64,000 bases of DNA, taken from assembly GCF_000143535.2 (NCBI RefSeq), contig NC_037317.1:1-64000 (forward strand), read 5' to 3'. Source of the stretch: Botrytis cinerea B05.10 (lineage: Eukaryota > Ascomycota > Leotiomycetes > Helotiales > Sclerotiniaceae). Below the pieces are notes generated by a model. The model saw only the letters and a program-made list of their open reading frames with translations, searched no databases and had not been told where the DNA came from. The position numbers and the translations under genes were made by a program. This document shows positions 36,754 to 47,655 of the stretch, piece by piece (positions within the stretch are counted from its first letter, which is position 1; every line of letters starts with the position of its first letter).

Positions 36754-36816
36754 TCAATGCAACCTGACAATCTGCTCGTGTAATTTTCTATTTGCGTCCT
36801 CAAAAGCCTCGCCAAA
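36754..36816 (-). pseudogene. Severed C-terminal end of the HET-domain gene
   Basis: Minus-strand codons GEAFEDANRKLHEQIVRLH then TGA (36756-36754) directly abut the retrotransposon. With the element and one CCAAA copy removed (6444 bases, a multiple of three), these codons continue the HET frame from the other side without interruption. The string also resembles the usual end of long HET proteins (GE...GE...). It is no longer connected to its gene. Confidence 0.85.
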
Positions 36817-36965
36817 TGTCAAGGCACGGGTAAAGACGTATATTGTACCATAAGGGTGGAAGAGCTATGGAAGAGTGAGGCCCTACTTATAGGAAGCAGG
36901 GCACGCTAGTAGTCCGTGCCTAAGGCACGAAGGCAACTACAGAACATGTAGTTGGCGCCGTGACA
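36817..36965 (-). repeat. 3' LTR of the chromovirus
   Basis: 149 bases, TGTCAAGGCACGGG...GGCGCCGTGACA on the plus strand. It differs from the 5' LTR at five positions only, all within the first 33 bases on this strand. A purine-rich stretch (minus strand GAGCGGGGGGTAC) adjoins its inner edge, as a polypurine tract should. Confidence 0.93.
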
Positions 36966-37199
36966 GTACCCCCCGCTCAAGGCGATTGGTTCACGATCGC
37001 AATATAAATTAATCTAAGATAACAAAATAACACTAAAATATTCTAATCCCCATTACCAAATGAAAATGAACCTCCTTATAAATAGTTGTTAATTAACAAA
37101 GCTTTTTAGATCTGTCTTGGCCTCGTTTCGAGGTTGTGTTTGATATAGATACTAATGAAGGGTTAAGAAGATTAGAAGCAATAGATCTTTTGAAACCTA

Positions 37200-40100
37200 C
37201 CTAGGCGGGAAGATCTGGTTTGCCTGGATTTGCTAGATGGAAGGCAATGATCATGTTTTCCTGACCACGGAGGTCTTCGGCGGATTGCTAGAACGCTGGG
37301 TGATGTTTCCATTTAATTTGATAATGAAATCCGTTCTTATTGTGGCAATCAAGGATTTCTTCGAATTCCCATCATTCAGTTTCCTCATATATTTCGTTAT
37401 CCCTTTTAAGGACTCGGTTTTGGTTCCTGTGTGACTCTATGACGTTTATAATATCTTGGCCCGGTAATCCTGGTGAGCAGTGGAGTGGTCGGAGTAGTGA
37501 GTTGTGGAATACTGGGAAGATTTTGAAGTTAGCTGGGAGTTGGAGCAGGCAAGCACGTTTGTAAATCTTGAGAACCTTATAAAGGCCATCCCATTTGTCA
37601 TCACCTTTTTTCATCGGTCGATTGGTTTTCATGTTCTTTATACTCACCCATACTTTATCACCTTCCTTATATAAAGGGGTATCCGAACGGGTTTTGTTGG
37701 TATAGTCCTCGTATCTCTGAATCGATTGAACTACAAGTGCCTTCAATTTCGTTAAGATGAGATCAAATCGATTTGCAACCTCATTGGCCTTAAGGAACTC
37801 TCGTTTCCTTTAATAAAACAGATTTGGTGGAACAGATATAGATAGCTCGATGCCGAGATGTGGGTGGAAACTGTAGTTAGCGAAGAATGGGGAGATGCCG
37901 GTGGTCTCCGACGTGGTATTGTTCAATGCAAATTCTACGAGTGGAAGCCAATCAGGCCAATCATTCTGATAGAAGTTCATAAAAGCTCGTAGGTATTATT
38001 CGACCATAGCATTAATCCTTTCTGTCTAACCGTCGAACTCGGGATGGAATAAGGAAGATCGTTTCAGGGCAATTGACAATCGCTCGGATAAATGCTTCCA
38101 AAATTCAGAAACGAATTGCGAGCCCCTGTCGGATACGATATTATCAAGGGCACCATATAGATAGTAGATTTTTTCAACAAATCTATCCGCAAGCTTTTCT
38201 GTGGACAGTTCTACAACCAGTATAAAATGATGCATTTTGGTTAGGCGGCAGACGACTGTGATAATGTGTTGATACTTCTTTCCATGGCGTTCACTAACTA
38301 ATAGTAGTGTAATATAGTCAATAGAGATATCAGATCAGGAACGGAACAGTACTGGTAGGGGTTTAAGGAATCTAGATGCGGCAAGGTGGGAAGCTTTTGT
38401 TCGAAAGCAGAGTTAACAAGCCTATACAAATGTCTCGATCTCCCTTGATATATTAGGCCACCAATACATACAGAAAACAAGATCGATAGTTTTGACGCAG
38501 CCCGAATGTCCAGCTGGTCCAATTGAATAGATTCGATATATAATCTGCATACGAAGTTCGGTGGAGGAAAGAACAAAAAAGCGGTTGCAATAAAAGATCT
38601 TTCTATTTATTAGTTTACAATCTTGTAAGGCGATTCGAAGGTCCTTACAAATGCTTAGCAGCCAATGGCGAGCAAAGGGATTCCGAAGTATTATATGTAT
38701 AGTAATAACCAGCTTGGATAATTCGTATACCTTATTGATGAGGTCGTCGATCGGCTTGTCGGTATCGGGGATGATTATACCCATTGGGGCTATAGTCAGG
38801 TCTAGATCACTGTTCGCCTATCAAATGATGTCTTTGAATGTAGCAGTATCAAATACTCTCTCTGGGAGGATTGTCTGTAAGCGGTTCTTGATTCGGTCGT
38901 TGTTAGGGTCGGCGTGTGCTGGGCGATCTTCCGCTCTGTGGCTCAAAACGTTGGGGCGAATGGCTTTATGGCCAGATCGGTATATAATACAAAAGTTGAA
39001 TCCAGATAAGAATTCAGCCCATCTAGTCTGCCGTTGATTTAACATCTTCATGAACATAAAGTATTCAAGGTTTTTATAATCAGTGATAATCTCGAATAGC
39101 TCCTGAGCTTCATACAATTCTGGTTTCCATTCTTTTAAGGACTTTATAATAGCCAGGAGCTCTTTGTTGTAGATCTCATAGTTGCATTCAGCAACGTTAT
39201 ATTTTGATGAGAAGTATGCTATCGGGTGTAGGCGCCCTTCATCATTATATTACGAAAGGATGCTACCTGCAGCCCAATCGGAAGCATCGGTCTCAACGAT
39301 TGTACAGCGATTGTAATCAAATATGGTAAGGATCGGGACGGAGGAGAAAGCGTTCTTCAATATCTTGAAGACATTGTTCTGATCAAAAGTCCAATCCCAT
39401 ATCTATTCCTTTTTTAAAAATCGATTAAGGGGTTCTACGATTCTGGAGAAATTACAAATGAAATGTTGGTAAAAATTAGCAAATCCAAGGAAGCGTTAGA
39501 AATCTTTGAACTTAATTAATGATTTCCACTCGAATATAGTACTAATCTTTTCCAGATCCATTTCTATGTCTCCAAAAATAATAATCAAACCGAGGTACTT
39601 AGTTCTCTTCGTTTCGAATTTGTATTTATCAATATCAATCTATAATCCAGTATTAATTAATTGTTGAACCATTTCACAAACATATTATCTATGATTTGTA
39701 ACGTTCTCAAAATAGATTAGAATATCATCCAAATACGTCATGCAAATCCTATCCAGAAGATTAAAAAGAATATAATTGATATAATTCTGGAATAAGGCAG
39801 GCACATTGCAGAGTCCAAAGGGCATCACCAATAATTTGAATAGATCAAAGTGAATAGTGAAAGTGGTTTTCTATTCATAGCCTTCTACAATCTATAGTTT
39901 GTTGAAAGCGGCGATGATATTAAATTTGATATAGATTTTTGTATAACAAAGAGTATCAAGAGTTTCCTTAATCAATAGTAAGGGATATCGATTCTTAATG
40001 GTAATATTGTTTAGATTGTAATAGTTTTAATAGATTCAAACACCTCCTTTAAGTTTGGCAGTTAGAAGGAATAGGATAGCCGATTGGAAACGAGATTCTT

Positions 40101-41433
40101 AAATAAATCCTTTATTCAAATTGTTATTGAACTATTGATGAATAATTCGAAGTTTGGTTGGGGATATTGGACAGCCTTTATTATATAATAATTCTTTATC
40201 TAATATAATCTCAATCTTATAATCTCAAAAGTGTTGTAATGGAAGTTTATTTATTAGGGATGGTAGGAACTCTGGATATAGATTGCAGAGCTAGGGAGGT
40301 AGCTTATCTTGGATCTCTATAATGGAAGAAACAGATCGATCCGTTTTTTCCATGAACTTATTGATATCGCTATTTATTAAGTTATAATGCAATTGAACAG
40401 TATCTCCTATTATCATATGATATAGCTTGTAAGCTTTGTCCAATTCATCCCAGAACACTTTTGTGATATAAGTATTTAGGCTTTTATAGAATTAAATAAA
40501 ATTATTAATTATAAAGAACTTTATATTTTACATTTCAAATCGAATACCTTACAGAATATCGAATGATTCATTTATAGAGCTCGATAGTATTGATATATAT
40601 AATAAGGGTAGGATGTTTTTATTCCGTAATGGTTTTTTATATATTCTGAAGTCGGCAATTATTCGAGCTGGGGCTAGTTTTAGGACTAATTGATTTGGGA
40701 TCATTTTAACTCGGATTTCCGCTTCACCACTGATATAACAAATGTGATATGGATTCGATTTGAATAGAACTTTAGGATTAATAATATCGAGATTTCTCTA
40801 AGCATTTTGAATCTCAATATATTTGAGAATCGTGAATTGATCTCGAAATAATAACAAAGTATTCTCATAACTTTCATTGGTGATTTCTTTTATAAAAACT
40901 AATTTCGGAGCGAGCTTTTGTAAGAATGATTTAAAATCGATTGATACAATTTTGTGATTTTCTTATAAAATTATCTTATAAGTATTAGTAATATCGAAGA
41001 TAGTGATTGTTATAATGCTAACAGAACAGTAGTATTTCGAGTAATATATAGATATAAATCTGAGTGTCATCACTAATCAATCGATGTTGAGGTTGTAACA
41101 CTGAAGCCATAAGAAACCAAGGATTATAGGATCTACAATTGATAAAGTAATGATATAGAACAAACCGATCTCCCTATAATCATTGATTTGTATATTTAGG
41201 AATGTATACTGCGATAGAATATCGAAGGGTTTTTTATCGATTAAAAATAAATAATGAATATAAAGAAAAGGGTATATAGGGATATAAAACTCGGAAATGA
41301 CTTTCCTATTAATAAAGCTATAACCCATAGCTCCATTATTTATGAGATTAATAAACGGGATGATTATATTAGGCGCAAGAGAGATTTCTATTGAGATTCT
41401 AAAAGATTTGCTATTTATTGATCTAAAATACAA
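37200..41433 (-). pseudogene. Chromovirus pol: protease, RT, RNase H, integrase, chromodomain
   Basis: From right to left on the minus strand: a retropepsin-like block near 41340 (LINNGAMGYSFINRKVI, with the active-site Asp now Asn); RT with YLDDILIYFENV at about 39721-39735; RNase H with FMKMLNQRQTRWAEFLSGFN and IIYRSGHKAIRPNVLSHRAED (38900-39060); an integrase zinc region (GHSGCVKTIDLV..YWWPNISREIETFV) near 38430-38520; core DNIVSDRGSQFVSEFWKHL (38130); C-terminal VFHNSLLRP (37450); and a chromodomain (EFEEILDCHNKNG, YQIKWKHHPAF, then a stop) at 37240-37370. Several stops fall inside each domain. It once made the enzymes for reverse transcription and chromatin-targeted integration. Confidence 0.88.
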
Positions 41434-41499
41434 AGAATCCCTAGATATAATCGATCTTTTAATCTATAAAGGTAAATTTCCTATAAAGGATCTCAATTC

Positions 41500-43000
41500 G
41501 CAACTATAAATCGAGGTTAATCTTTTAACATACCCAGCTATGGAAATAAGCTTCCGCTTTTTTTCAAATAAACAGAACCCTCAATGTACCCTCCTAGATC
41601 AACTTTTTGGGTAAGGCTAGGGGGAATTGGAGAGGTATAGTATAATAGCGTGGACGAGAAACGATTGGCAGATAAGAACGGATTCTGGTACAAGAGGGCA
41701 GTGGCATTGCAATACAATCCGGGGTCTTGATATTGATTGGTTACTGGGATATGATTGGTATAAGAGGTGTATCTCATATTAGCATTAATATTAATATTAT
41801 ACTTTATATCATTGGCTTGTTTCTCTTTGCAATTGCTTTTAATATAACCGAGCTTTTTGTAATAAAAACAAAGGCCGAGATCAATATATTACTCTCGAGT
41901 ATAACGAGATAAGGAACGCTAATCTTGGCGAGTAGTATCCAATTATATAGAATTGTTAAAGAGATCCAATGTAGAAAGGGTTGCAATAGGAGCCTGCTTT
42001 CTATCATGAGGTTTCAATTGATTACGGTTGAAATTGGTACCTTGGTTCTTTTATTAGCTATCGAGGTGAGTCTTTTTTTCCAAATCATCGTATATATCTT
42101 GCCATTAGATTATCCATACATCGATATTAGTAATAGAGGGTTTATTAGAGTGGTTAATTGAAGTATCGATCAATTTCTGGGAAACCTTAAGTTTAAGATT
42201 AGCGATTTGTTGTTTAGTGGTTTTTTTGTATTTTATAGCAAACTGTTTGAACTCGGTAATGAAATTATTAAACGGGATTTTCTTCATTTTGCACTTATCA
42301 TAATCCATAAAGGCTTTTCATAAAAGATTAAGAATCTAATATTGCTTATTCAATTCATATTAGATACTCATAACGATACACTATCCGGAGGGCTAAAGGT
42401 TGAAATCATACAGATTATCAATAATTACATCGAAGTATATCTGATTGTTTGTATAAATAGAACCAAAAAGCAGGTTAATAAGGAATGTAATCTTTTGAAA
42501 TTTCGATTCGTTTTTGTAATTGATGATTAAGTAATAATTTATTGTATTATAAAACGCTATATATTGATTCTAATATTTTATAATGTTTTATTTAATACTA
42601 TTAAACTTTTCGAAAGTAGTGAAATACTTTCGATGAAGCAGGATTTACGGGTTATTACAAATGGTAAATTTCAATATCTTAATTGTATCTTTCAATTTGA
42701 CAATCTTCGATTGGGCGTTGGTGATTTGGGTTTTCGTTGTAGTGGTTTGAGCTTATAGTGAACTTGTAATTGATTCGATCAATTCAAATACAACTTAAGC
42801 AGTTACGAAATGTATAGTGTTTGGATTGTTGAACAAATCTGTGAATGAAGAGATATCAGTTTCGGTGGAGTTGAGAATATGGTTTAAGAAAAGGAATTGT
42901 GGGGATAGATTAGGTGCAGGTGCTTGAGCGGCTATTTTTAGGACACTTTCAAGATTGCAAAGCAACCCTGCAAAGTTTTTAAACAATAGTGATTAGGGTG
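41500..43000 (-). pseudogene. Chromovirus gag region, degraded
   Basis: This is the position of gag between the 5' LTR and the protease. Short minus-strand frames remain (for example near 42105-42308, FITEFKQFAIKYKKTTKQQIANL, typical of a capsid-like helical region). No complete zinc knuckle could be read. Called mainly from position. Confidence 0.6.
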
Positions 43001-43106
43001 TATGGCGGGCTAATGGTGGGTATGATCAGCGCGATCGGGATACAACGTCGATAGAGTTTTTAATTAAAATGAAGTTGTGATAGTTTCTTATGAAGATGGT
43101 ACAAAC

Positions 43107-43255
43107 TGTTAAGGCATGGGTAAAGATGTATATTGTATTATAAGGGTGGAAGAGCTATGGAAGAGTGAGGCCCTACTTATAGGAAGCAGGGCACGCTAGT
43201 AGTCCGTGCCTAAGGCACGAAGGCAACTACAGAACATGTAGTTGGCGCCGTGACA
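43107..43255 (-). repeat. 5' LTR of the chromovirus
   Basis: 149 bases, TGTTAAGGCATGGG...GGCGCCGTGACA on the plus strand. Relative to the other LTR it carries five C-to-T changes, confined to the edge facing the interior; the outer ~115 bases are identical. It supplies the new stop codon (43210-43212) of the truncated HET frame. Confidence 0.93.
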
Positions 43256-45172
43256 CCAAACATGATTCCATCGACATAACATCTTCCAATAAAATCGTAT
43301 TCAACTGGGTTATCAACCCGTTTCTTAATGGTAAATGGCATTTTCCCTCCATAGAATATCCAAATCTCGTCTCCAGGCTTTGTTTCTCGATTTCCAAGTC
43401 CTATTGCGCCTTTTTCTGTAATAAAAAATGAAGCATCTTTCACCATACGCCATATTGTCTGTCGAGCAGCATTGGGAGGTGGCCGTCCACTTGTAGCAAA
43501 TGCAAAAGCATCATGAGCATCACCAGAGGAGGCTCGTGATAGTACCCAATCCTGGTCATTCCGGACAAAATCTCCAATGAGCATCCGACCAAAAGCCTGC
43601 TGCCGATCAATTCCAGAGCTGCAGTTCGCAAGAACAGCCCATGTAGACAAAGTCTGAACGAGTTTCTCATTGGATATATTCTTACTTGGTGCATACTGTG
43701 GTCCCTCAACAAATTTTATGGTATCGACTAGAATCCCTTTCAGCGATAGCACCATTTTTGTCTTTGCAGCGGAATTCAGCAAGAGCTCCCGGTCCATCGG
43801 GCGGTCGTTTGCTGCATTATAATGAGGATATCCATGCAATGGGTAGTACCCCTCGCTGTTACTTGGACAGGCTTTCAAGTCTAGGGCCCAATGGGGTATC
43901 CCAGGTGTTGGATCTTCTAGTATTCGGAGTTCCATGGCAAGTGGTCGCAAATCTGATTCGCATGATATCAAATCGATGGTATTTGACGCATAATGCGTTG
44001 CAACTTCGACCTGTAACAGGTGTAATTAGCATATGCCTTGATGGACGGTTTCATACGACCCAGGTGCTAATTCTGATATGGTGATTATAATACATGTCAT
44101 ACTGAGTGTAGGAATTAATATCGGCAAACAGAGTGCTAACTTACTATATTGACGTTAGTTGCAATACTCGTTACCCAAGAAACAGTCTCCAAATTTCCTT
44201 CGACGTAAAAACAAATAGCGAGAAAGACTTACCTTTGTAATCGCAGTCTCCCATATTTGGCAGCTGTCCCTTTTCTATCAAACCCAGAAGCGCAAAAACT
44301 TTGTCTCGCGGGTCCGTTGCCCCTCTCATACGCCATCTTATCATCAAATCGAGAGGATATCGGTCTCTCTGGTATTTGGTGCTGGTTATCCATATCACCT
44401 GGCACATCAAGTCATCCAAGAAATCGAGATTGGTTTTACTCAAGACATAATGAATAGGTGTGGGTCTAGTACCAGATATCCAATTTTCTGATGCCTGGCT
44501 CAATACATTCCACTCCAAATGCAACGGGCCCCAGACTAAACACAAATTTGGCGGGAGAACAGCTTCCTGCACAGTCCAGATTCGAGTCCACCACAGATTT
44601 TCAGAATTAGAAATAGACCTTAACGCCCTCATGGCGCGTTTGAAATGATCTAAAGACGCAATAAAAGTGGGAACCGGGACTTCTTTGTCATCTTCAACTT
44701 CTGATAGAATCGCCATGTATTCACAAAATTCCAACCCCGCTTTTGCGTCAGTCAATTCAATATCATCTCGGATCTCCCCCATCCAGGCTAAACATCTAAG
44801 TGACAGGCGATATATGTCAAGCATCATCTGAACTTGCCAAGATTTCTCGTCCGGGTCATCCTGATTGATGCATATCTGGTCGATCCATAACGTCCTAACT
44901 GAATTTCGTAGCCTGAGGTTACAGAGAGCATTATGCAAATTTTTGGTAACTTCGAACTTCGTTCCCGCAATCCATATGGTGTCCTTTTCAGTACCCTGGC
45001 CTCCCCAGACGTACGATAGTGCTTCATACTGCGGGCGAGTCGAAAGAGACACAACGTAAGTATCGCATTTAATGGCCGCATTATCAACTCCACTAACGTT
45101 AGGAAGGAGCTTTAGCAGTCGAACTTCATCCCGAAAAATTGTGGTGTAAATATGAGATGATAATGTGATCAT
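43256..45172 (-). pseudogene. HET-domain (heterokaryon incompatibility) protein, 3' end displaced by a retrotransposon
   Basis: The N-terminal HET domain has its usual blocks: YEALSYVWGG (about residue 50), LWIDQICINQDDPDEKSWQV (about 95) and an IYRLS..CLAWMGE block. Exon 1 is 45172-44233; a short exon around 44139-44060 (VSTLFADIN) and a long exon 44010 onward follow, with the middle splice sites uncertain. The frame reaches GRCYVDGIMFG, then enters the LTR and stops after about 13 LTR-encoded residues. The true last 19 codons lie at 36754-36816. HET proteins act in non-self recognition and trigger cell death after fusion of incompatible hyphae. The displaced tail is short, so a near-full-length product could still be made; whether it functions is unknown. 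No RIP-type stops were seen in the HET body. Confidence 0.88.
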
Positions 45173-45885: not shown

Positions 45886-47220
45886 TCATTTGATCCAACC
45901 CTTTGGCCCACCCCAAGTACCCTTCACCATGTACTTCCCGTACACCCATGGAAAGAAATTCTTCTTCAAATAATAAAATTCTGTTCGCGGAATAGCTTGA
46001 TCAATGCCGAACCATTTGTTGAATGTCTCCTTTGGTACTCCGCCGTACTTGAATTCTGCAAGAAGTACCTTTCCATATTCAGTCAAGAGAGGACACGATG
46101 TATAACCATCGTAAATTTGCTCCGGTTCACGACCATCAATAGCCAATAGTAAGTTTCGAACCAAAACTGGTGCCTCTGCAGTGATCGCTGCAACTGTTTT
46201 AGAAGTTGGCAAACTCGAAGCGTCTCCAGCAGACCAGACGTTATGATATTTGATATGACGTGTAGTTCCTTCGTCGACGTTGACATAGCCAGCATCATTT
46301 GCGAGTACACTATTCTTGACGAAATCATGTGGTTTATTCTTTGGTACCACATGCAAAAGATCAAACTCTCTCGTAACCTGTCCTTTGCCATCTGGTTGAG
46401 TAAAAATCGCCCTGTTACCATCTATGGCGGTAAGGTCATGCTGAAACAGCCCTTCCACGAACCTTTCTTTTCTCAATTCCTCAAGCGTGGCACTATATTT
46501 AGGAACTCCAAACATTGTTGGGAGACCGGTGGCAAAAGAAACGTTTATCGCGGAATTTGAAGGATTCTTAACATCATATAGGCCAGCACGTTTCCAATAG
46601 TCCAATGCTAGCCACATAATTTTCTGCGGAGCACCAGCACATTTTATTACACCGGCTGGTTGAGTGAAAATGGCCTTTCCCTTTTGTAGTTTCTGTATGG
46701 TACCAAAGACCTTATCGCAAGTGTCGTAATTGTATATAGAGGACACAAGAGAGTCGGGGTTTCCAAGTGCTTCGAATAAACCTTTCACACTTCCAACATC
46801 AACTGTAATGCCTGGAGCAACAACGAGTTGGTCATAATTGACAATATCCCCGTTCTTCAGCGTAATGAAGTTTTCATCTGGGGAAAAGCCCTCCACGCCG
46901 GTATTGTAAAACTTAAGTTTAGAATCAATCAAATCCTTTAAAGGTTTTCGGAGACTCTCTTTTGTCTTAAGACCACCTCCGACAAGAGTCCATCCGGGTT
47001 GATAGTGATGCCAGGTGGCTGGGTCAATGATGGCAATATCGTCTTGATGGAGATTTGCTTGTCTAAGGAGCTGATGACTGATAGAAAGCCCAGCGGAGCC
47101 ACCACCCACTACAACAATCTTATGATTCCGGTTGTGACCAACCACAGGTGATACAGTCGCAAAACCTCGAGAAGTCCGAGCAAATTGAGCCCTGCATATA
47201 GAACGTAAAGGTATCAACAT
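45886..47220 (-). CDS. Sulfide:quinone oxidoreductase, mitochondrial
   Basis: Single-exon gene of 444 residues. It oxidises hydrogen sulfide and passes electrons to ubiquinone in the inner mitochondrial membrane, as human SQOR and fission-yeast Hmt2 do. The start chosen (47220) gives MLIPLRSICRAQFARTSRGF, a good mitochondrial presequence; the frame is open 45 codons further upstream but that part looks unlike a protein start. The FAD-binding GGGSAG is at residues 39-44. The two redox cysteines of the mitochondrial type are present: Cys194 in VIKCAGAPQK and Cys376 in YTSCPLLTEYGK. HNVWSAGDASSLPTSKT is the second FAD-contact motif, and the C-terminus (FFPWVYGKYMVKGTWGGPKG) is the membrane-associated tail. 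Intact, with normal codon use, next to a disrupted HET gene and a RIP-damaged element. Confidence 0.95.
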   Translation of the reverse strand: MLIPLRSICRAQFARTSRGFATVSPVVGHNRNHKIVVVGGGSAGLSISHQLLRQANLHQDDIAIIDPATWHHYQPGWTLVGGGLKTKESLRKPLKDLIDSKLKFYNTGVEGFSPDENFITLKNGDIVNYDQLVVAPGITVDVGSVKGLFEALGNPDSLVSSIYNYDTCDKVFGTIQKLQKGKAIFTQPAGVIKCAGAPQKIMWLALDYWKRAGLYDVKNPSNSAINVSFATGLPTMFGVPKYSATLEELRKERFVEGLFQHDLTAIDGNRAIFTQPDGKGQVTREFDLLHVVPKNKPHDFVKNSVLANDAGYVNVDEGTTRHIKYHNVWSAGDASSLPTSKTVAAITAEAPVLVRNLLLAIDGREPEQIYDGYTSCPLLTEYGKVLLAEFKYGGVPKETFNKWFGIDQAIPRTEFYYLKKNFFPWVYGKYMVKGTWGGPKGWIK

Positions 47221-47655
47221 TATTATAATATAAGTTATCACGTTACCGCGAAAGATAGATCTATGAATAGTTATAAAAAGAGAGTGTAAAAGTAATTGAA
47301 CGAACAAGGAATATTGAAAGCGATCAAGCCTATTGAAAGGATTTTTGACATCCACAATAAGAGGCTCGATTACTAAACAGTTTTAGTCAGCAAACCGATC
47401 ACGCCATCGTGACTATTTCTATCGTCAACCTATGAGAAGCTCAATTGGATAAAAAAATAGGAAGTCTCGAATCGTATGAGGATTAACACATCAATACGCG
47501 TCCCCAGCTCCTATAATCAGACCAGATATATCAGATTCGTGAAAACTCATCATCAGATGTGATTGGCTTCGGTTCTCGAACCTGATAACCCCATGGCTTC
47601 GGAACCATGTAATCGGACAACAGCCCTGACGAATCTTTAGGGAACCAGCTCTGTC
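47221..47655. other. Promoter-side flank of the quinone oxidoreductase
   Basis: No gene; normal composition up to the TA target of the next transposon. Confidence 0.4.

What the first reader, a model, noticed from the sequence alone, without database searches (positions are those of the whole stretch)
36754..45172. A chromovirus cut the last 19 codons off a HET-domain gene, and the frame continues exactly on the other side
The element is bounded by CCAAA duplications. The HET frame stops inside the 5' LTR, while GEAFEDANRKLHEQIVRLH-stop sits outside the far LTR. Element plus one duplication is 6444 bases, divisible by three, so the empty site would be a continuous gene. HET genes control vegetative incompatibility, so this could be a loss or altered-function allele, and possibly a strain polymorphism. 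The HET body shows no RIP stops, suggesting recent or tolerated damage.
Basis: partly seen in the sequence, partly recalled or inferred. Interest (0 to 1): 0.8.

Follow-up and report, generated by a model that had tools for sequence, protein, structure and literature searches.

The report
Retrotransposon-truncated HET gene, strain polymorphic
In this grey-mould genome a jumping element has landed near the end of a gene of a type linked to fungal self-recognition, replacing its last 18 amino acids with 14 of its own, while other strains of the fungus keep the uninterrupted gene.

Summary
A 6439-bp Ty3/gypsy-type element (36817-43255) lies between CCAAA duplications inside a HET-domain gene (BCIN_08g00080; Botrytis cinerea B05.10, chromosome 8). 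Joined tails exist: two other B. cinerea proteins (BcDW1; ACHAO8_009804) and one of B. paeoniae end in GIMFGEAFEDANR.LHEQ.VRLH. No GT/GC-AG splice pair tried around the junction could fake this join from an inserted copy, so the insertion is a strain polymorphism. The present frame keeps the glycine, loses 18 residues plus stop, and gains 14 LTR-coded residues. The lost tail is conserved: 116 of the 120 best-matching proteins continue at least 12 residues past the insertion point.

Against four full-length sister copies of equal length the element differs at 956-968 sites, all but 0-8 of them RIP-type: a young insertion, RIPped up to its LTRs, with no RIP visible in the HET protein.

Added finding: the gene carries a predicted [D1,2] stwintron (44233-44011), which restores the reading frame and explains three conflicting public gene models.

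Unproven: whether the gene acts in vegetative incompatibility, and whether the altered tail kills, changes or spares function. Structure prediction even lets the LTR-coded tail mimic the lost strand, but the alignment biases that result. A new, well-resolved instance of a known kind of event.

The parts
36817..43255 (-). Ty3/gypsy-type LTR retrotransposon, 6439 bp, same orientation as the HET gene, heavily RIP-mutated
   Evidence: ends, LTRs; same length and ends as four other copies; domains in a sister copy
43107..43255 (-). LTR next to the HET body (the element's 5' LTR in its own sense); 5 C-to-T differences from the other LTR
36817..36965 (-). far LTR (3' LTR in the element's sense); identical to the LTRs of three full-length copies over all 149 bases and of a fourth over 147
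43256..43260 (.). target site duplication CCAAA, HET side
36812..36816 (.). target site duplication CCAAA, far side
36754..36810 (-). the 19 displaced codons (EAFEDANRKLHEQIVRLH plus stop)
   Evidence: same residues joined in P0001 and P0002
44234..45172 (-). HET gene exon 1 (313 codons, contains the HET domain PF06985)
44011..44233 (-). predicted [D1,2] stwintron (whole intervening sequence)
44144..44232 (-). internal intron of the stwintron, 89 nt, GTAAGT...CTAAC...TATAG, sitting between nt 1 and 2 of the external donor
43256..44010 (-). HET gene exon 2, native part, up to GIMFG
43210..43255 (-). LTR-encoded end of the HET frame: last base of the Gly codon, 14 codons VTAPTTCSVVAFVP, stop TAG

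Best explanation
A gypsy-type retrotransposon inserted recently, in the lineage of B05.10, directly behind an almost invariant glycine near the C-terminus of a subtelomeric HET-domain gene. It created a natural chimeric allele: the HET domain and nearly all of the C-terminal part are kept, and the last 18 residues (predicted to end in a beta strand) are replaced by 14 residues read from the LTR, which also supplies the stop. The element was then heavily mutated by RIP in one or more sexual cycles; the damage all but stopped at the LTRs and shows no trace in the HET protein. Other B. cinerea strains keep the uninterrupted gene (583 residues when its stwintron is removed). Shown: insertion, duplications, joined alleles elsewhere, RIP pattern, tail conservation. 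Inferred: stwintron splicing, transcript ending in the LTR, and most likely a weakened or altered HET protein.
For: TSDs and LTR pair. Joined tails in B. cinerea BcDW1 and ACHAO8_009804 and B. paeoniae BPAE_0135g00260; no GT/GC-AG pair tried around the junction could produce the join from an inserted copy. B05.10 and BcDW1 proteins identical over 258+252 compared residues; 2 of 565 differ from P0001. Element versus four copies: 956-968 differences, of which 0-8 are not C-to-T or G-to-A in this copy, at equal length; no RIP change in the far LTR, 5 in the first 33 bases of the near one. Tail over all 120 listed homologues: 116 have at least 12 residues past the insertion point, 111 have 12-21; of the 119 with a residue there, the next residue is E in 89, and the penultimate residue is L/I/V/M in 115. 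AF2 of P0001 (mean pLDDT 87.1) makes residues 605-610 a strand (mean pLDDT of block 601-610: 88).
Against: No transcript or phenotype data. The AF2 model of the present exon 2 places a strand in the LTR-coded tail (259-264; blocks 251-260 and 261-266 at 72 and 84), so function may be spared; that alignment laid homologues' tails over it, which biases the result. The public B05.10 model is a 363-residue protein that never reads exon 2 in frame. One listed homologue, P0074 (336 aa), lacks the whole C-terminal part, so HET proteins without it exist. The strains behind P0001 (13 member sequences), P0002 (2) and P0003 (8) could not be broken down by allele.
Confidence: 0.8

Rival explanations
1. 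The LTR-coded tail stands in for the lost strand, and the chimeric protein works normally: a tolerated insertion without phenotype.
For: AF2 of the present exon 2 puts a strand at the LTR-coded CSVVAF (259-264). The HET domain (49-203) is untouched. Only the last 18 of 583 residues are affected. Four of 120 listed homologues lack a normal tail.
Against: The homologues' tails were aligned over the LTR tail, which pushes the model towards a strand. The lost tail is conserved among the 50 aligned homologues of only 30-42% identity, with E or Q behind the Gly in 107 of 119; the LTR tail has V there.
Confidence: 0.3
2. The gene was already dead or truncated in the whole species (frame lost at the intron), so the element landed in neutral sequence.
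For: Removing the 222-nt GT-AG interval as one intron shifts the frame and gives the annotated 363-residue B05.10 protein. Three public models disagree there.
Against: A [D1,2] stwintron restores the frame without adding a residue; the 12-residue spacing across the junction equals that of 49 of 50 homologues, the other having 6. The motif, written after the site had been seen, is the only hit in the window and has 0 hits in 20 shuffled windows. In the P0001 model, residues 316-333 of its 28 extra residues are under pLDDT 50. Exon 2 is open to its stop and keeps invariant residues.
Confidence: 0.12
3. Assembly or annotation artefact: the element was misplaced, or the other strains' models spliced it out.
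For: None found.
Against: Perfect TSDs at this copy and at four others of the same length. None of the GT/GC-AG pairs tried around the junction gives the joined tail. The B. paeoniae protein is joined too.
Confidence: 0.02

Closest known systems
Ty3/gypsy LTR retrotransposons of B. cinerea B05.10 (BcGypsy1-4 of PMC8365987; sections 5, 7 and 22 and passages read)
   Same: Gypsy-type element in B05.10; the paper reports low-GC (RIPped) and high-GC full-length copies side by side in this strain, as seen here for this family
   Different: This copy lies inside a HET coding frame; which named subfamily it belongs to could not be settled, as family sequences are in supplements that I could not look up
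HET-domain proteins with a C-terminal second domain (PF06985 + PF26639)
   Same: PF06985 at E 1.7e-29; 50 aligned homologues of 30-42% identity to P0001; most listed hits carry the precomputed PF26639 label
   Different: Present allele ends in LTR-coded residues; PF26639 is a precomputed label only, my own Pfam scans returned PF06985 alone. No evidence that this gene is a het locus. The two cloned B. cinerea loci are of other types: Bcvic1 NACHT+ankyrin, Bcvic2 SNARE (passage in PMC11138114)
[D1,2] stwintrons (PMC9024468, passages read)
   Same: Internal intron between first and second base of the external donor G|URWGY; here G|TAAGT
   Different: Single copy in this genome; splicing not shown
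Degenerate het genes in Sordaria macrospora (PMC2851567, passages read)
   Same: Het-type genes (het-6 orthologue, a tol-related gene) that carry internal stops
   Different: Internal stop codons there; an exactly placed element insertion with both alleles in one species here

Membership tests
Ty3/gypsy LTR retrotransposon | paired LTRs starting TG and ending CA, with target site duplication | tested here: met
   four sister copies each with their own 5-bp duplication, (one sister LTR starts TA)
Ty3/gypsy LTR retrotransposon | RT, RNase H, integrase in this order | tested here: met
   in one non-RIPped sister copy: RT 477-635, RNase H 698-829, integrase zinc-binding 975-1031, all above cut-off; a protease match (46-126) and the rve core (1055-1147) were below cut-off. 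The window's own copy is broken by RIP and was not scanned
chromovirus | chromodomain after the integrase | tested here: inconclusive
   PF00385 at 1375-1416, E 0.0069, 16.7 bits against cut-off 25.1; SH3_Tf2-1 35.6 bits, above its cut-off of 30
HET-domain protein | PF06985 match above gathering score | tested here: met
   103.5 bits against 22.5
vegetative incompatibility (het) locus | allelic or non-allelic differences trigger cell death after fusion | not testable with these tools
   needs barrage tests; a PMC3158057 passage counts 65 HET-domain genes in B05.10, and few HET genes are known het loci (recalled)
[D1,2] stwintron | internal intron between nt 1 and 2 of the external donor, each with donor, branch point and acceptor | tested here: met
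   motif at exactly 44233..44011, 0 hits in 20 shuffled windows; a looser part of it in 43 of 20000 shuffles of the interval
[D1,2] stwintron | two consecutive splicing reactions seen in RNA | not testable with these tools
   no transcript data
RIP product | C-to-T and G-to-A changes only, confined to repeated DNA | tested here: met
   545 G-to-A and 411 C-to-T and no other change against one of four copies (2, 3 and 8 others against the rest)

The most novel reading that the evidence does not exclude
The LTR did not kill the gene but gave it a new C-terminus: a working HET allele whose last strand is retrotransposon-coded, so that insertion-bearing and insertion-free strains differ in self-recognition or cell-death response. 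RIP froze it by inactivating the element while sparing the LTR that now serves as the gene's end.
Probability: 0.08. Interest if true: 0.75.

Novelty: new member of a known kind. Interest (0 to 1): 0.45.

Why it matters
It is a clean natural experiment in the commonly used reference strain of a much-studied fungus: both alleles exist in one species, the junction is exact and the event is young. It lets one ask directly whether a conserved C-terminal tail of a HET protein is needed, and whether element insertions feed HET-gene turnover. For annotation, the reference model of this gene is likely wrong twice (stwintron missed, native end displaced), so surveys that compare HET repertoires between strains would misread this locus. 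The RIPped copy beside four nearly unmutated copies is also a precise record of how far RIP reaches from a repeat towards unique coding DNA.

Tried and rejected

Rows dropped: of 1373 hits, 120 were listed. For A1 I chose 52 of these by eye as near full-length; P0003 was left out because its annotated end is frame-shifted, others for partial coverage, and P0038 and P0057 without a good reason. In those 52 all tails continue (12-102 residues), E follows the Gly in 42 and the penultimate residue is L/I/V/M in 52. To undo the selection I counted all 120, and those numbers, including the 4 proteins without a normal tail, are used above. One search gave 4 further proteins; 3 have the tail (P0121, P0122, P0123), P0124 is a short model without that region.
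Full report
WHERE. The window is the start of contig 8 of a 42.63-Mb genome in 18 contigs and begins with telomere-type repeats.

THE ELEMENT. Two 149-bp LTRs lie at 36817-36965 and 43107-43255; the element is 6439 bp, flanked by CCAAA at 36812-36816 and 43256-43260. The own genome holds at least four more full-length copies of exactly the same length, each with its own 5-bp duplication and an identical LTR pair. In one of them the long frame matches RT, RNase H and integrase zinc-binding families above cut-off, with protease, rve core and chromodomain matches below their cut-offs. Element and HET gene point the same way (minus strand).

AGE AND RIP. Compared position by position with the four copies, the window's copy differs at 958, 956, 961 and 968 of 6439 sites; 956, 956, 958 and 960 of these are C-to-T or G-to-A in the window copy, leaving 2, 0, 3 and 8 others. 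So nearly all divergence is RIP, and the insertion is young; LTR divergence must not be used as a clock here, since all 5 LTR differences are C-to-T. RIP changes start 174 bases in from the far end and stop 33 bases inside the near LTR. The HET protein equals that of strain BcDW1 in all 258+252 residues compared and differs from ACHAO8_009804 at 2 of 565, plus one residue in the 28 that I take for intron (read by eye). DNA of those strains was not available, so silent changes are untested.

THE DISPLACED TAIL. Reading the HET frame into the LTR gives ...YVDGIMFG-VTAPTTCSVVAFVP-stop, the stop ending at 43210. Outside the far LTR lie the 19 codons EAFEDANRKLHEQIVRLH-stop. P0001 (B. cinerea ACHAO8_009804, 611 aa, cluster of 13 sequences) and P0002 (B. 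cinerea BcDW1, 528 aa, cluster of 2) end in the joined form; so does B. paeoniae BPAE_0135g00260, with two substitutions in the tail. A B. porri model is too short to tell. I tested whether gene prediction on an inserted allele could fake the join: none of the GT/GC-AG pairs tried around the junction yields the joined tail.

CONSERVATION OF THE TAIL. Of all 120 homologues listed, 116 continue at least 12 residues past the insertion point, 111 of them by 12-21. Four do not: P0003 (the B05.10 model), P0032, P0074 (336 aa) and P0086 (labelled partial). Of the 119 with a residue in the Gly column, 116 have Gly, 89 have E and 18 have Q next, and 115 have L, I, V or M as penultimate residue. In the 52 chosen for modelling the Gly is invariant and all 52 have the hydrophobic penultimate residue. 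AF2 of P0001 (mean pLDDT 87.1) makes residues 605-610 a strand. AF2 of the present exon 2 (mean pLDDT 89.4) draws a strand at 259-264 from LTR-coded residues; the alignment put homologues' tails over them, so this only shows that a substitute strand is not excluded.

THE INTRON. Removing the canonical 222-nt GT-AG interval in one step shifts the frame and gives the public 363-residue model; BcDW1's model skips part of exon 1, and ACHAO8's adds 28 residues. A two-step reading solves this: removal of the 89-nt internal intron 44232-44144 (GTAAGT...CTAACGTCAATATAG) leaves AAA|GTAAGT, a regenerated donor, and the 134-nt external intron then ends at ...GCTAATTACACCTGTTACAG. This is the [D1,2] stwintron layout described in PMC9024468 (passages). 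The product has 12 residues between CDY and IDLI, as in 49 of 50 homologues (the other has 6). The full motif, which I wrote after seeing the site, occurs once in the window on both strands, exactly there, and in 0 of 20 shuffled windows; a looser part of it appeared in 43 of 20000 shuffles of the interval. The interval is single copy in the genome. Residues 316-333 of the P0001 model, within its 28 extra residues, are under pLDDT 50. RNA evidence is lacking, and one untested single-intron acceptor would also restore frame (see Tried and rejected).

FUNCTION. The HET domain is complete. HET-domain genes are many in this strain (65, PMC3158057 passage), and the two cloned B. cinerea incompatibility loci are of other types (PMC11138114 passage). 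So a role in incompatibility is only a family-level expectation. My best guess is a weakened or altered allele (about 0.55), then a neutral one (0.3), then a gene already dead (0.12).

NOVELTY. Element insertions that cut genes (general knowledge) and degenerate het genes (PMC2851567 passages) are known kinds. No paper on this insertion showed up in the listings; the library lacks most subscription journals. The exactness of the evidence, the two alleles in one species and the stwintron lift it above routine, but not to a new kind.

Noticed in passing
window 44011-44233 (minus): Predicted [D1,2] stwintron in the HET gene; it explains why three public gene models of this gene disagree.
   Followed up: yes
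window 36817-43255 versus L039-L042: One heavily RIPped copy sits in the same genome as four nearly unmutated copies (4-19 differences among themselves), so the clean copies probably spread or arrived after the RIP event or came through another parent.
   Followed up: partly
window 36817-36965 and 43107-43255: RIP all but stops at the LTRs (0 and 5 changes in 149 bp), although the LTR search found 28 matches in the genome, the window's own two included.
   Followed up: partly
window 36991-43139: RIP context preference is weak here: CA 37-38%, CG 30-32%, CC 24-28%, CT 22-25% of sites changed, whereas PMC8365987 (section 7) cites a CA and CT bias for B. cinerea.
   Followed up: no
window 45886-47355 (minus): Neighbouring open frame of 489 aa that reads like a mitochondrial sulfide:quinone oxidoreductase (recalled resemblance, not searched).
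   Followed up: no
G000 C9:1910258-1910878 and other places: Several other HET-like stretches in the genome contain stop codons, so more HET genes may be decaying (introns not excluded).
   Followed up: no
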